A stretch of 25,087 nucleotides of DNA from the IMG/VR virus record IMGVR_UViG_3300009169_000091, positions 1-25,087 of that record, one strand, 5' to 3'. Below, in pieces: positions 2,546 through 18,951 of this stretch. A program made the position numbers and the translations under genes. The first letter of the stretch is position 1, and each line of letters begins with the position of its first letter. This DNA is from a virus. The notes under the pieces are model-generated. The model did no database searches, had not been told where the DNA came from, and saw only the letters and a program-made list of their open reading frames with translations.

Positions 2546-3265
2546 ATGGGCGACTGGTATGTCAATGGCGTAAAATGGACCGGCGCAATCAAGACGGTCG
2601 GGGCGAGTGGCAAGGACTATACCACCCTCGGGGCGGCGGTTACTGCGAATAAGAATGTAGCGGACACCCTTTACCTTGTAGATGCGGGAACGTACACGGA
2701 AAGTGCCATCTCCGGAGGTACCAAGAGGGCGATCGTTCGGGGCCTGGGAGACGACGCGACTGGTGTTGTTCTCAATTTTACCGCCGGACAGAATTGCGCG
2801 GGATTCACGCCAGGGTATGTCACTCAATACCATATTCTGGAAAATGTGAAGCTCAACAGTACCTCTGTAAATGTAGGCATGACAGGTGGATATATTGACG
2901 CCGGCGGGGTAGATTATATCGTCAACAAGTGTATCCTTGGTTCGTCGTCGATAAACAAATACAGCAGCGGCGTCTACGCCGGTTCAACCGGCGGCGGGCC
3001 GTATTATCGGTTCAAATATACAGACATCTACCGTGGATCAGATAACTCGTTTAACGGGGGTCATCTTACACAGTTAAACCTGAGCAGGGTCTATCTCACA
3101 AAAGTTGCTTATTATAGTACATGGAGGGTGCCTAATTGCACTGGGTCCCTTGCCGAGGACGACAAGGCCGCAATCGGGACGGGCGGATATGGGTATGCAA
3201 GCGGTGATTTTATAGTGACGTATGAGGAGGAGTTTGTCCCGAAGATCATCACGGTGATTGGATGA
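2546..3265 (+). CDS. Beta-helix-like tail fibre or tailspike protein
   Basis: 239 aa, preceded by GGGAGAGAA. Residues 15-60 contain the GKDYTTLGAAV...DTLYLVDAGTYTES pattern typical of right-handed parallel beta-helix (pectate-lyase-like) proteins, where a short repeat leads into the first coil. Residues 60-200 carry irregular strand-turn repeats rich in Asn, Gly, Ser and Tyr. Phage proteins of this shape bind or cut host surface polysaccharide (family knowledge). At 239 aa it is short for a full tailspike and no catalytic Asp/Glu pair can be assigned, so it may be a fibre tip or receptor-binding protein. It ends one base before the ATG of the lysis-cassette gene. Confidence 0.65.
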   Translation: MGDWYVNGVKWTGAIKTVGASGKDYTTLGAAVTANKNVADTLYLVDAGTYTESAISGGTKRAIVRGLGDDATGVVLNFTAGQNCAGFTPGYVTQYHILENVKLNSTSVNVGMTGGYIDAGGVDYIVNKCILGSSSINKYSSGVYAGSTGGGPYYRFKYTDIYRGSDNSFNGGHLTQLNLSRVYLTKVAYYSTWRVPNCTGSLAEDDKAAIGTGGYGYASGDFIVTYEEEFVPKIITVIG

Positions 3266-3266
3266 G

Positions 3267-3809
3267 ATGCCTGGCTGGTACCGCCGATACTTCGACAACG
3301 AGGAGGACGTAAAAGGGATGGAGCGCTGCGAAGGACATGATTCCCTGGTGATGACCGTCTCCCGTGCGGCTGAGGCGACGGAGCAGCATGGCCGCCAGCT
3401 CGGTAAGATCTTCGAGATGGTGCGGGAGATCAAGGAGGCGGTTGACAAGAACGCCGTCCGCGCAGAGGGCCGCGACGTGGCGCTCGCGACCCTGAGCGAG
3501 ACCATCCAAAAGATCGATCACAAGATCGAAAACGGCCTGCGGTCCGAGGTCCGTGAGTGTGCGGCAAAGATCCGGGAGATGATGGGCTTCCTGGACGCCC
3601 GGAAAAAAGAGCGGGTGATGGCAGAGGTCCACAGCCGGCAGCGGTTCCTCCGCCGCGGGTGGGATGAGTTCAAGGGGAAGGCCGCCTTCATCCTGGTCTC
3701 CTCGACGATCATTGTCTGCGCCTGGCTGGTCGTCTACATCCTCACCCGGATCAAGATATTCCACGAGGGGCCGGAGGCGCTCCTGAAGCTCTTTGGGATC
3801 GGGGGGTAG
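3267..3809 (+). CDS. Coiled-coil, single-TM protein (holin-associated / XhlA-like)
   Basis: 180 aa from the ATG at 3267. A TTG at 3258 would add three residues, but the homologous copy at 1501 begins at this ATG. Residues 30-110 form a long charged helix (KIFEMVREIKEAVDKN, LSETIQKIDHKIENGL) likely to be a coiled coil. A hydrophobic segment at about 139-160 (AAFILVSSTIIVCAWLVVYI) is one membrane span, followed by a short tail. This helix-plus-C-terminal-TM layout matches small phage lysis accessory proteins of the XhlA/hemolysin type. The neighbours downstream support a lysis role. It may also help anchor or time the holin. The first 91 bases are duplicated at 1501-1591. Confidence 0.65.
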   Translation: MPGWYRRYFDNEEDVKGMERCEGHDSLVMTVSRAAEATEQHGRQLGKIFEMVREIKEAVDKNAVRAEGRDVALATLSETIQKIDHKIENGLRSEVRECAAKIREMMGFLDARKKERVMAEVHSRQRFLRRGWDEFKGKAAFILVSSTIIVCAWLVVYILTRIKIFHEGPEALLKLFGIGG

Positions 3810-4235
3810 ATGCTCCAGGCGCGGCTGACCCGGATCGAGAGCTCGGACGAGGGGACCTTCGGGATCTTCTCCGGGGAGGGGATCCCGACCGTCTATACGG
3901 CCGAGCCGCCCTGGCGGGACAACCGGCCGAACCTCTCCTGCATCCCGGCGGGGGAGTACGAGGCCCGGCCGTGGGAGAGCGCCCGCTTCCCGGGGACCTG
4001 GCGCCTGGAGGCGGTGCCTGGACGGGCCGCGATCCTCACCCACCAGGGGAACCTGGCCGGGGATCCGGAGAGAGGATATGTCCGGCATTCCCTGGGCTGC
4101 ATCCTGGTCGGGGACCGGCGCGGGTGGATCCGGGGACAGAAGGCGGTCCTCCTCTCGGTCGTCGCCATGCGGCGGCTGCGGGAGGCGATCGGACGCCGGG
4201 CGTTCCGGATCCGGATCGCGGAGACATATATATAA
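3810..4235 (+). CDS. DUF5675 family protein, candidate lysis enzyme
   Basis: 141 aa, starting directly after the previous stop. The sequence shows the family pattern: TFGIFSGEGIPTVYTAEPPW followed by RDNRPNLSCIPAGEYEA, then VPGRAAILTHQGN and a terminal HSLGCILVGDRR motif. The conserved Cys, His and Gly-Cys pieces resemble the arrangement of small peptidoglycan-active or L,D-transpeptidase-like folds, but no activity has been established for this family to my knowledge. It is the only soluble candidate enzyme in the lysis cassette, between a TM coiled-coil protein and a holin-like protein. No signal peptide is visible. The family call is fairly sure; the lysis role is an inference. Confidence 0.75.
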   Translation: MLQARLTRIESSDEGTFGIFSGEGIPTVYTAEPPWRDNRPNLSCIPAGEYEARPWESARFPGTWRLEAVPGRAAILTHQGNLAGDPERGYVRHSLGCILVGDRRGWIRGQKAVLLSVVAMRRLREAIGRRAFRIRIAETYI

Positions 4236-12167: not shown

Positions 12168-12755
12168 ATGAATATCACGGAGATTAAAGTATCGTTGGAG
12201 GGGTTGTCAGACATCATGTTCGATAGGTTCATTGACCACAGCAAGGAGGATCGGCCGCCGGAGAAAAAGCTGTATCTCAACGGAGACAATGAGCTGGTGC
12301 TGCCGATGGAGTGCCTTCATTCATTCCTGTTCCGGGACATGGCGCCCGTCGGGATCATCCGCACCACGGAGAAAAACAAGGCGAAGGATTATATCGCGTT
12401 CGGCCAGGCCTATGTGGCCATCGAGCCGGTTTTGATCCCCTTTCGGGACGCCAAGGGGCGGACGCTCGTTTTCAACGGATTCGGCAATGGCTCGCCGCTT
12501 TACATCAACGACTGGTCTGCCGGCGTCACAAAGATGAGCAACGGCAAAGTGATTAAGCAGGAGGTCCGGAAGCGCCCCGTCTTGAAGCTGCCCTGGTTCC
12601 TCGATTTTCGGATCCAACTGGTCGAAAACGACAAGATCACGGAGGAAAAGCTCCGCACCTGGTTCGAGCTCGGCGGGATGATCACGGCGATCGGGACATA
12701 CAGGCCGCGTTACGGGCGCTTCACCGTGAAAAAGTGGGAAAAGAAGGGGAAATAA
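12168..12755 (+). CDS. Conserved phage protein of unknown function (IGxYRPxxGRF C-terminal motif)
   Basis: 195 aa behind GGGAGGAGGAGAGGAAAG. The N-terminus has a strand pattern (ITEIKVSLEGLSDIMFDRFI) followed by polar segments and KKLYLNGDNELVLPMECLHS. The C-terminal half has strands (VLKLPWFLDFRIQLVENDKI, TEEKLRTWFELGGMITAIGT) and ends YRPRYGRFTVKKW. This layout, with a helix then a conserved IGxYRPxxGRF motif, resembles an uncharacterised phage family. Its architecture recalls ferredoxin-like RAMP (Cas7-type) folds; that comparison is from memory and unproven. It directly precedes the GGCNN arrays and the replication genes, so a nucleic-acid role is plausible. Confidence 0.6.
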   Translation: MNITEIKVSLEGLSDIMFDRFIDHSKEDRPPEKKLYLNGDNELVLPMECLHSFLFRDMAPVGIIRTTEKNKAKDYIAFGQAYVAIEPVLIPFRDAKGRTLVFNGFGNGSPLYINDWSAGVTKMSNGKVIKQEVRKRPVLKLPWFLDFRIQLVENDKITEEKLRTWFELGGMITAIGTYRPRYGRFTVKKWEKKGK

Positions 12756-12770
12756 TTAAGTCCTCGACGA

Positions 12771-13179
12771 GGCTGGGCGGGGCGGGGCAAGGCTGGGCAA
12801 GGCTATGCTTGGCTTGGCTGGGCAAGGCACGGAGTTTCAAAAAAAGAAGATGGGCGCAGGATTAGTCCGTAAATATAAGCCGGGTGTGGCGTGGCTCGGC
12901 GTGGCGCGGCCGGGCCTGGCATGGCGCGGCTCGGCGAGGCACGGAGTTCCAAAAAAAGAAGATGGGCGCAGGATCAGTCCGTAAATATAAAGCCGGGCGT
13001 GGCACGGCAAGGCAAGGCTGGGCGAGGCGGGGCATAGCAAGGCACGGAGTTTCAAAAAAAAAGAGGATGGGCGCAGGATCCAGACATAAATATGAACCAG
13101 GCGAGACTCGGCCAGGCACGGCCAGGCATGGCGTGGCACGGCGAGGCGAAGCTTGGCGTGGCGTGGCAGGGCACGGAGT
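12771..13179 (+). repeat. GGCNN pentanucleotide arrays 1-4 with conserved linkers
   Basis: Four arrays occupy the 449-bp gap before the gene at 13205. Array 1 is 12771-12835, array 2 is 12883-12947, array 3 is 12996-13050 and array 4 is 13100-13179. They have 12, 12, 10 and 15 pentamers. Nearly all are GGC followed by two free bases. Every array ends GGCAC then GGAGT, followed by TYC and an A-tract. The linkers between arrays share GAAGATGGGC, CAGGAT and GTAAATATAA-like AT-rich ends. The last linker becomes the leader of 13205 (TAGGAGGAGAAA). Open frames across the region are a by-product of the repeat and not genes. Confidence 0.95.
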
Positions 13180-13204
13180 TCCACAAAAAAAATAGGAGGA
13201 GAAA

Positions 13205-13501
13205 ATGCAAACAACAGGATTTCGCGAGAAGATCGTCGGGCTCGGCGGAAAGGCCGCTGAGATCATGGAGGAGTATTTCGGCGGGAAGAGGCAGGGCAAC
13301 GATATGGTCCGCGAGGCATCGAAGATGATTAGCCAGGCCATCAAGGTGGAACATATCAATCAGATCAAGACGCAAACGGACCGCTCCTTCGCGCTACGGC
13401 TGCTGCAATATCTCCCGAAGGAAGGCAATGCGAGGAAAAAATACATCGAGCTCACCAACCCGGAGTTGAAGCCGTTGTTGCTGGAAAGGCCGAAGAAATA
13501 A
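13205..13501 (+). CDS. Small helical protein embedded between pentamer arrays
   Basis: 98 aa, ATG at 13205 with TAGGAGGAGAAA before it. Helical throughout and strongly basic towards the end: GFREKIVGLGGKAAEIMEEY, GNDMVREASKMISQAIKVEH, FALRLLQYLPKEGNARKKYI, then NPELKPLLLERPKK. The last part (Leu-rich, Arg/Lys, NPEL) resembles short phage proteins of unknown function. It has no Cys, signal or membrane segment. The gene sits between array 4 and array 5, so it may be expressed with, or bind to, the repeats. Nucleic-acid binding is suggested only by charge. Confidence 0.65.
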   Translation: MQTTGFREKIVGLGGKAAEIMEEYFGGKRQGNDMVREASKMISQAIKVEHINQIKTQTDRSFALRLLQYLPKEGNARKKYIELTNPELKPLLLERPKK

Positions 13502-13505
13502 ACCA

Positions 13506-13670
13506 GGCGTGGCGTGGCTTGGCCCGGCACGGCGAGGCCTGGCCAGGCACGGCATGGCACGGAGTTCCATAAAAAAGAAGATGGGCCGTAGGATCCGGCC
13601 ATGAATAATATACTGGGCGCGGCTCGGCACGGCGAGGCAAGGCTCGGCAAGGCGCGGCTTGGCACGGAGT
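13506..13670 (+). repeat. GGCNN pentanucleotide arrays 5-6
   Basis: Array 5 (13506-13565, 11 pentamers) begins 4 bp after the stop of the 98-aa gene. Array 6 (13616-13670, 10 pentamers) is 50 bp on. Both end GGCAC then GGAGT. The linker has the same GAAGATGGGC and GGAT parts and an AATAATATA-like AT-rich end. The bases after array 6 form the leader of the primase gene (GTAGTAGGGGAAAA). The 5-bp register is perfect. Confidence 0.95.
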
Positions 13671-13704
13671 TCCAAAATAGCGAGAAGAAAGTAGTAGGGG
13701 AAAA

Positions 13705-17184: not shown

Positions 17185-17880
17185 ATGAGCAAGAAGGCGA
17201 AGATCCAGGCGGCGGCGGCGAGGACCTGGGCGTATCTGCGGGTGTCGACGGACGAGCAGGACGTCAAAAACCAGCGGGCGGAGATCCTCACCCTGGCGAA
17301 CGGACAGGGCGCGGCCGGCCAGGTCCAGTTCATCGAGGATCCGGCCGTTTCCGGTCGGGTGCCCTGGCGGACCCGGAAGATAGCGGGCGTCCTGGAGGAG
17401 ATGCAGCCGGGCGACGCGCTGATCGTGGCGGAGCTCTCCCGCCTCGGCCGGTCGATGTATGAAATCATGGAAATCCTGGCGCTCGCGGTGCAGAAGGGCG
17501 TCCGGATCTACGCGGCGAAGGGCGGCTGGACCCTGGACGACACGATCCAGTCGAAGATCCTGGCGATGGTCTTCGCGATGGCGGCCGAGATCGAGCGGGA
17601 CCTCAACGTGCAGCGGACGAAGGCCGCGATGGCGACCCGGCGCGCCATGGTGGCCCGGGGCGAAGCCTGGATGTCCAAGGCGGGGAACCTGGTCCGATCC
17701 CTGGGGCGGCCGCCGGGCCCGGGACCCTCGAAGCTGGACAAACACGCCGAGGCGATCCAGGAGCGCCTTCGGCTGCGCGTCCCGATGATCCACATCGCCG
17801 GGGCGTTCGGCACGACGCCGGCGAACCTCCGGCGGTGGATGAAGAAGCACAACATCGAACGGCCGCAGGATAATATATAA
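17185..17880 (+). CDS. Small serine recombinase (resolvase/invertase family)
   Basis: 231 aa with a GAAAGGAGGAGGCA site. The resolvase domain spans about residues 14-150: catalytic Ser21 with Arg19 in YLRVSTDEQ, EDPAVSGRVPWRTR, AELSRLGRSMYEI (Arg86 and Arg89), then the long dimer helix E (ILAMVFAMAAEIERDLNVQR). The C-terminal 50 residues include a helix-turn-helix (MIHIAGAFGTTPANLRRWMK) that binds site arms. Length fits small resolvases and invertases, not large serine integrases. The enzyme makes double-strand cuts with a 2-bp stagger and rejoins by subunit rotation (family knowledge). It is monocistronic, with its own promoter and terminator. The inverted sites upstream and the 72-bp repeats downstream are likely partners. 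Multimer resolution is one role; inversion of a segment is another. Confidence 0.92.
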   Translation: MSKKAKIQAAAARTWAYLRVSTDEQDVKNQRAEILTLANGQGAAGQVQFIEDPAVSGRVPWRTRKIAGVLEEMQPGDALIVAELSRLGRSMYEIMEILALAVQKGVRIYAAKGGWTLDDTIQSKILAMVFAMAAEIERDLNVQRTKAAMATRRAMVARGEAWMSKAGNLVRSLGRPPGPGPSKLDKHAEAIQERLRLRVPMIHIAGAFGTTPANLRRWMKKHNIERPQDNI

Positions 17881-17923: not shown

Positions 17924-17966
17924 GGTGCAGCCGGGCGGCGGAGATCCACCTGGCGGCGGCCGCGGG

Positions 17967-18182
17967 CGGATAAACGCAAACCGGCGGGCAAACGCAAAAG
18001 AGCGTTTACCCGGGAAGATACGTTTTCCCGCAGCCGGGCGGATAAACGCAAATAGGCGGGTAAACGCAAAAGAGCGTTTACCCGGGAAGATCCGTTTTCC
18101 CGCAGCCAGGCGGATAAACGCAAACCGGCGGGCAAACGCAAAAGAGCGTTTACCCGGGAAGATCCGTTTTCCCGCAGCCAGG
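17967..18182 (+). repeat. Three 72-bp tandem repeats with internal palindromes
   Basis: Copies begin at 17967, 18039 and 18111 with exactly 72 bp between them and only a few substitutions. Each unit contains ATAAACGCAAA, then a second AAACGCAAAAG, then GCGTTTACCC. In copy 2, GGGTAAACGC (18058-18067) and GCGTTTACCC (18074-18083) form a perfect 10-bp stem with an AAAAGA loop; copies 1 and 3 have one mismatch. A second hairpin follows (CGGGAA with TTCCCG). The direct AAACGCAAA boxes look like iterons. There are no unique spacers, so it is not a CRISPR. Possible roles are a replication origin, a partition site or accessory recombinase sites. Confidence 0.9.
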
Positions 18183-18951
18183 CGCCGAGATCGAGGCCGC
18201 AGCCGGGACCGGAGCGGCCGATCCTGGACGTTTTCGCGGATTCGGGCGAAAACGGCGCGCGAGGATGGCCTATAAACGACGATCGCCGGCCGGGACGGGT
18301 GATCCTATGGTCCGTTTCGAGGCGGCGGGCGGAGCCCTGGAGGCGAAACCCGGAGACCGGCATCGAGGCGGCCGGGCGGACACCTGGGCGCCTGGGTAGG
18401 ACGACCACGCCGGCAGCGCCGGCCGATCCGGACGGCGGCGGCACCTGGCAGCCGGCAGCCGGGCCCGTCGCACCCCGACGACCCGAGCACCCAGGCGACC
18501 CGACCCGCGCGCCCCCGAAAACCGGGCGGCCGGGACTCCTGCCCCCCCTATCATGTCCCTTCCCGTCAAAATTATCCCCACTTTTCATCCTTCATTCGGG
18601 ATCACGTTGTTATGGCGTTGTACGGTCTGAATGGAAGGGAAGGGGGCGCGGGGGCCTCCGCCCCGGGAGAGGAAGGAAGACCCGGGGATCTACCCGATCG
18701 GGTCGCCTGGGCGATCCTCCGAAGCTGGATGGTCATATCGAGAGGGAGGGGGCGCGGGGATCTGCCGGGATGGGTAAAGGGGTATAGGAATATGGCGAAC
18801 TACAAAGCCACATTTCACCCCCTGTCAAGCGTTTTTTTTCGTTTTTGAATTTTTTTACGTTCGCCTGTCTTTGTCCTCCTTTGTTTTCGCCACCCACACC
18901 CGATTGCACGAAAAACCCGTGGTAATAATGCAGCCGTGACAACCTCCTCAC
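18183..18951. other. Non-coding or undetermined region before the terminase genes
   Basis: No convincing gene in about 770 bp. Frames on both strands are rich in Pro, Arg and Gly, lack ribosome sites and cover one another. Bases 18183-18540 are very GC-rich. Bases 18550-18650 contain a short AT-richer island. Bases 18805-18890 are pyrimidine-rich on the plus strand with long T-runs. TTGACA on the minus strand (18825 region) has no good -10. This is a likely place for a packaging (pac/cos) site or late promoter, but neither can be shown. Confidence 0.4.

What the first reader, a model, noticed from the sequence alone, without database searches (positions are those of the whole stretch)
12771..13670. 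Six phase-perfect GGCNN pentamer arrays around one small gene
By my count 70 pentamers occur in six arrays with no insertion or deletion. 65 start with GGC and the other five have one substitution in the core. The NN positions use all 16 dinucleotides. Selection therefore holds spacing and the GGC core, not the whole unit. GGC recurs every half helical turn on one strand only. Each array ends with the same GGCAC-GGAGT-TYC block and an A-tract. Possible roles: binding array for an oligomer, replication origin near the primase, an R-loop or single-strand-annealing site, or a boundary for module swapping. I recall low-complexity translated ORFs of this type in some phages but know of no function.
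Basis: partly seen in the sequence, partly recalled or inferred. Interest (0 to 1): 0.85.

Follow-up and report, generated by a model that had tools for sequence, protein, structure and literature searches.

The report
Phage RNA-guided VIPR guide arrays
The odd five-letter repeats are genes for six small guide RNAs of a recently described virus-against-virus system (VIPR), in which the two variable letters of each repeat spell out the DNA target and the gene just upstream encodes the CRISPR-like protein that carries the guide.

Summary
The arrays are not DNA-binding sites or an origin. They are six vrRNA genes of a VIPR system (Viral Interference Programmable Repeat; PMC13142463, 2026). The gene directly upstream (12168-12755, phrog_4652) is vipr. 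Its model is Cas7/Csm3-like (VIA Z 13.6), and its family profile matches PDB 36pp, "SUSP1 Vipr protein", at E=4e-40. Of 122 loci (121 viral contigs fetched by repeat pattern alone, plus the window), 90 carry this gene beside the arrays. Conversely, all nine vipr loci first found by protein and inspected have arrays. NN content is hypervariable while cores, phase and flanks persist (L069/L099, mycobacteriophages). Across 4033 units, NN composition fits codon positions 1-2 best, which agrees with the published one-base-skip code. The window is a new member, far from the characterised SUSP1 system. It has a conserved 98-aa gene (13205-13501) that may be a new accessory protein. I found no convincing target for its guides, and the skip rule could not be confirmed by matching in my small data set.

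The parts
12168..12755 (+). vipr gene (195 aa), Cas7/RAMP-like guide-RNA binding protein
   Evidence: phrog_4652 1.7e-7; AF2 pLDDT 90; Csm3/Cas7 by Foldseek 2.5e-5 and VIA Z 13.6; family profile matches PDB 36pp SUSP1 Vipr 4e-40; profile hit in window 1.4e-32
12768..12839 (+). vrRNA 1: guide NN = GA TG GG GG AA TG AA TA TT TT TG AA; constant tail GGCACGGAGTTTCA 12826-12839
12880..12951 (+). vrRNA 2: CG GT GT TC GT GC CG CT AT GC TC GA; tail 12938-12951
12993..13054 (+). vrRNA 3: CG GT AC AA AA TG GA GG AT AA; tail 13041-13054
13097..13183 (+). vrRNA 4: CA GA TC CA AC CA AT GT AC GA GA TT GT GT AG; tail 13170-13183
13205..13501 (+). candidate accessory gene (vap), 98 aa, predicted helical
   Evidence: homologues inside the VIPR loci of L104, L139 and L140; no PHROG or Pfam hit, no PADLOC hit; AF2 pLDDT 72; no significant fold match
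13503..13569 (+). vrRNA 5: CA GT GT TT CC AC GA CT CA AC AT; tail 13556-13569
13613..13674 (+). vrRNA 6: TG GC TC AC GA AA TC AA GC TT; tail 13661-13674
12840..12879 (+). conserved spacer after the A-tract (GAAGATGGGCGCAGGATYAGTCCGTAAATATAA), repeated after arrays 1, 2, 3 and 5 and absent after 4 and 6: longer tail, leader or processing region, role not settled
   Evidence: alignment; no Rfam family reaches its gathering score

Best explanation
The locus is a VIPR system of a temperate phage. The gene at 12168-12755 makes Vipr, a small RAMP protein. The six arrays are transcribed as vrRNAs, each with 10-15 guide units ahead of the constant GGCACGGAGTTYCA tail. Vipr subunits line up on the RNA, one per pentamer, gripping GGY and presenting NN. 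The NN pairs together recognise a DNA target written NNxNNxNN..., with one skipped base, usually the codon wobble base, and binding represses transcription of a competing phage or satellite. Shown here: array anatomy, the link to the gene, Cas7-like fold, family membership, hypervariable NN with fixed core and phase, and codon-like NN composition. Taken from the paper on SUSP1/P. fulva systems: RNA expression, RNP formation, skip code, repression. Inferred: one subunit per pentamer, that the window's copy is active, and what it targets.
For: Protein-array link: 90 of 122 loci fetched by the DNA pattern carry the gene, on the array strand in all but partial L071, usually 10-150 bp away. All array proteins tested are phrog_4652. 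Reverse test: L138, L139 and L140 and six named-phage loci found by protein all have arrays, with GGTNN in the AT-rich Felix O1 type. Fold: Csm3/Cas7. Sequence: PDB 36pp 'SUSP1 Vipr protein' 4e-40; VSe11 protein against 36pp 2.8e-127. Paper: GGY/NN repeats, 9-16 units, constant tail. Hypervariability: L069/L099 have near-identical flanks yet arrays of 19 against 11 and 18 against 14 units with different NN; mycophages with 98-100% identical vipr differ by whole arrays, whole units or NN. NN composition best fits codon positions 1-2 (KL 0.060, against 0.092 and 0.229), in 500 of 500 bootstraps.
Against: No transcription data. No convincing target: the 1-nt-skip scans gave chance-level hits only. 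In 2.2 Mb of loci real guides did no better than unit-shuffled ones at any skip length. An independent-base model fits NN better than any codon model (KL 0.0145). Four units have cores outside GGY, which might weaken vrRNAs 1, 3 and 4. No sigma-70-like promoter was found. About 20 contigs have arrays but no detectable vipr.
Confidence: 0.94

Rival explanations
1. A degenerate, no longer active VIPR locus: the arrays are remains that drift.
For: Four of 70 cores depart from GGY; no target found.
Against: No indel in six arrays; identical tails; intact vipr ORF; the small gene has a clear ribosome-binding site; vipr and the small gene are conserved with 44-55% identical relatives.
Confidence: 0.04
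2. An RNA element that only regulates the phage's own operon: Vipr binds the arrays in its own 5' and 3' untranslated regions, like TRAP wrapping RNA with a 5-nt period, without external targets.
For: Arrays are co-directional and sit between genes and ribosome-binding sites.
Against: Does not explain hypervariable NN, variable copy number or codon-like NN composition.
Confidence: 0.015
3. A DNA element: origin, initiator array or recombination boundary near the primase.
For: Arrays end about 30 bp before the primase ORF.
Against: Primase-like ORFs in only 2 loci, while vipr-family genes are in 90 of 122; strand always follows the genes apart from L123 and partial L071.
Confidence: 0.004
4. 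Low-complexity coding sequence.
For: Only NN=TA gives a stop in any of six frames, so arrays look open everywhere.
Against: TA units occur (170 of 5124); arrays shift phase by 4 nt and sit between genes with their own starts.
Confidence: 0.001

Closest known systems
VIPR of Escherichia phage SUSP1 (type II) and the P. fulva prophage, PMC13142463
   Same: Phage-borne RAMP protein of about 195 aa, GGY/NN arrays in the flanking intergenic DNA, 9-16 units, constant tail, several vrRNAs upstream and downstream of genes
   Different: Vipr only remotely similar in sequence; tail here is GGCACGGAGTTYCA plus A-tract; the small gene beside the arrays is unrelated by profile to the type II partner phrog_5926; order is vipr - 4 vrRNAs - small gene - 2 vrRNAs - primase
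Csm3/Cas7 backbone subunits of class 1 CRISPR effectors
   Same: Fold over 171 residues (Z 13.6, rmsd 3.7) and a glycine-rich G(x)G..R..GRF loop
   Different: About 12% identity; no CRISPR repeat-spacer array seen in the window, no cas operon; guide is a gapped pentamer array
phrog_4652
   Same: The vipr family under its PHROG name
   Different: Annotated 'unknown function' in PHROGs v4

Membership tests
VIPR | Vipr-family RAMP protein by sequence | tested here: met
VIPR | RRM/RAMP fold with glycine loop | tested here: met
   C-terminal GTYRPRYGRF
VIPR | vrRNA of 9-16 YNNGG repeats | tested here: met
   10-15 guide units, each array starting C-NN-GG
VIPR | GGY constant, NN hypervariable | tested here: met
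   NN identity 27% between arrays; relatives differ in NN with core kept
VIPR | Invariant 3' tail after the repeats | tested here: met
   GGCACGGAGTTYCA in all six; the tail pseudoknot reported for SUSP1 was not seen, single-strand folds weak
VIPR | Accessory vap gene | tested here: inconclusive
   Conserved 98-aa gene; not compared with vap1-6, supplement not readable
VIPR | Encoded by a phage or provirus | tested here: met
   Integrase, primase, portal hits; virus record
VIPR | 1-nt-skip targeting of other elements | tested here: inconclusive
   No convincing target; composition fits codon positions 1-2
VIPR | vrRNA expression and Vipr-vrRNA complex | not testable with these tools
   Needs RNA sequencing and pull-down
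CRISPR-Cas class 1 | CRISPR array of long repeats and spacers | tested here: not met
   Only pentamer arrays and unrelated tandem repeats in the window
CRISPR-Cas class 1 | cas gene operon | tested here: not met
   No PADLOC hit for the two locus proteins; other genes tested are phage genes or unknown

The most novel reading that the evidence does not exclude
The window represents a VIPR subtype not among those described, defined by an 'IMFDRF' Vipr clade, the GGCACGGAGTTYCA tail and a new family of about 95-aa helical accessory proteins. A related possibility is that the vipr-less phage contigs with arrays are orphan guide carriers that use another element's Vipr in trans.
Probability: 0.35. 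Interest if true: 0.55.

Novelty: new member of a known kind. Interest (0 to 1): 0.45.

Why it matters
It turns an unexplained repeat into a decodable set of guides in an environmental phage. It also shows independently, from DNA pattern alone, that phrog_4652 and GGYNN arrays travel together across Felix O1-like, mycobacterial, Gordonia and Pseudomonas phages. The codon-position signal in NN supports the wobble-skip code without using any known target. The 98-aa gene is a concrete new accessory candidate.

Tried and rejected
Origin or primase link: primase-like ORF in only 2 loci. TRAP-like 11-mer ring: array lengths are broad, 4 to 30 and more units. Translated repeat: TA units are only mildly depleted. 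Hammerhead-spaced arrays: no Rfam match above its gathering score in the locus. Targets by the 1-nt-skip pattern: vrRNA 3 and 5 cores, no match in viral contigs; vrRNA 2 core, one site in two near-identical contigs with the skip off the wobble base and no extension; vrRNA 4, one hit in viral contigs without extension and none in genome contigs; vrRNA 6, nine of ten units in wobble frame of a Mu-F-like head gene in L142, but I estimate about one chance hit per scan, so this is weak. vrRNA 1 was not scanned against the collections. Skip-length test in 2.2 Mb of loci: no excess over shuffled guides. Early idea that vrRNA 3 reads like a Vipr C-terminus: no match found. Host: no relative in genome contigs, so it remains unknown. 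The loosest array finder was replaced by a scored one.

Full report
Observation. The six arrays are exactly as described: 70 units, 65 GGC, five single-substitution cores, all 16 NN, one strand, no indels, and the same 3' block. Thirty-nine GGCNN x4 matches stand against 0.04 expected. Each array is also preceded by C-NN-GG. NN letters of different arrays agree at chance level (27% against 26%), while the tails and spacers of arrays 1, 2, 3 and 5 are nearly the same.

Setting. The window is a virus record of 25,087 bases with an integrase, a repressor-like HTH gene, a D5-type primase/helicase, a resolvase and a portal. The arrays lie between genes, on the coding strand.

Related sequences. Arrays are strand-coherent in all loci but L123. 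An iterated profile of the upstream ORF hits 90 of the 122 loci, counting the window, next to the arrays and on the same strand except partial L071. All ten members tested are phrog_4652, unknown function. Searching by protein instead, 131 and 33 phage records match two members. Six inspected loci all have arrays, in GGTNN form in the Felix O1 type VSe11. The window's three closest relatives found by protein (L138-L140) have arrays too.

Identity. The ORF's AlphaFold model (pLDDT 90) matches Csm3/Cas7, and the family profile matches PDB 36pp "SUSP1 Vipr protein" at 4e-40. PMC13142463 describes VIPR: a RAMP protein plus vrRNAs of alternating GGY/NN, where NN pairs with DNA under a one-base-skip rule and represses competing phages. 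Apart from the accessory gene and natural targets, which stay inconclusive, every sequence-level feature I could test is met.

Evolution. L069 and L099 have near-identical flanks but arrays of 19 against 11 and 18 against 14 units with unrelated NN. Mycobacteriophages with nearly identical vipr genes differ by gain or loss of whole arrays, one-unit duplication or NN substitutions; the GGC core is kept. Gorge's 70% figure in that call is an ungapped comparison across an indel.

Code. NN usage in 4033 units is closest to codon positions 1-2 of phage genes, as a mix of about 65% sense and 35% antisense (KL 0.060, against 0.092 for positions 2-3 and 0.229 for 3-1; 500 of 500 bootstraps over loci). 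This agrees with the published wobble skip. It is not proof: an independent-base model fits better still, and direct matching of guides to 2.2 Mb of loci showed no excess over shuffled guides.

Accessory gene. The 98-aa ORF at 13205-13501 is conserved in the VIPR loci of L104, L139 and L140. It is predicted helical at moderate confidence, has no fold match and is not related by profile to the partner gene of Felix O1-type systems. I propose it as a vap; its role is inferred.

Targets. None convincing. The best candidate is vrRNA 6 on a Mu-F-like head gene in contig L142, nine of ten units in wobble frame, at a level where about one chance hit is expected.

Verdict. A new, distant member of the VIPR kind.

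Noticed in passing
L039, L060, L064, L073, L081, L101, L105, L112, L115 and others: Phage contigs with GGCNN arrays but no detectable vipr in the whole record, some 20-48 kb long: orphan guides, a divergent Vipr, or unrelated repeats (L064 is low-complexity).
   Followed up: partly
L145 896-1138, L133 2303-3049, window 12884-13195: Arrays are stop-free in all six frames unless NN=TA, so they can be annotated as spurious hypothetical proteins or N-terminal extensions in phage records.
   Followed up: partly
L143 1103-2320: In phage Gorge the vipr and partner genes are annotated as one fused ORF.
   Followed up: no
L132 about 2330-2400 and 3670-3840: Felix O1-like phage VSe11 carries GGTNN arrays on both sides of its vipr and partner genes.
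   Followed up: partly
17965-18184: Three tandem copies of a 72-bp repeat (94% match) just after a resolvase gene at 17185-17880.
   Followed up: no
1501-1710 and 3258-3809; 106-573: Partial duplications: a sequence reading MPGWYRRYFD.EED occurs twice, and the first copy is fused to a copy of the end of the 106-573 ORF region.
   Followed up: no
L123, L071: L123 has arrays on both strands; L071 has a partial vipr-like ORF opposite to its arrays.
   Followed up: no
viral contig arrays: In many loci arrays of about 10 units are separated by a single 4-nt unit (GGCA), a phase shift by one base; perhaps the staggered arrays of the paper.
   Followed up: no
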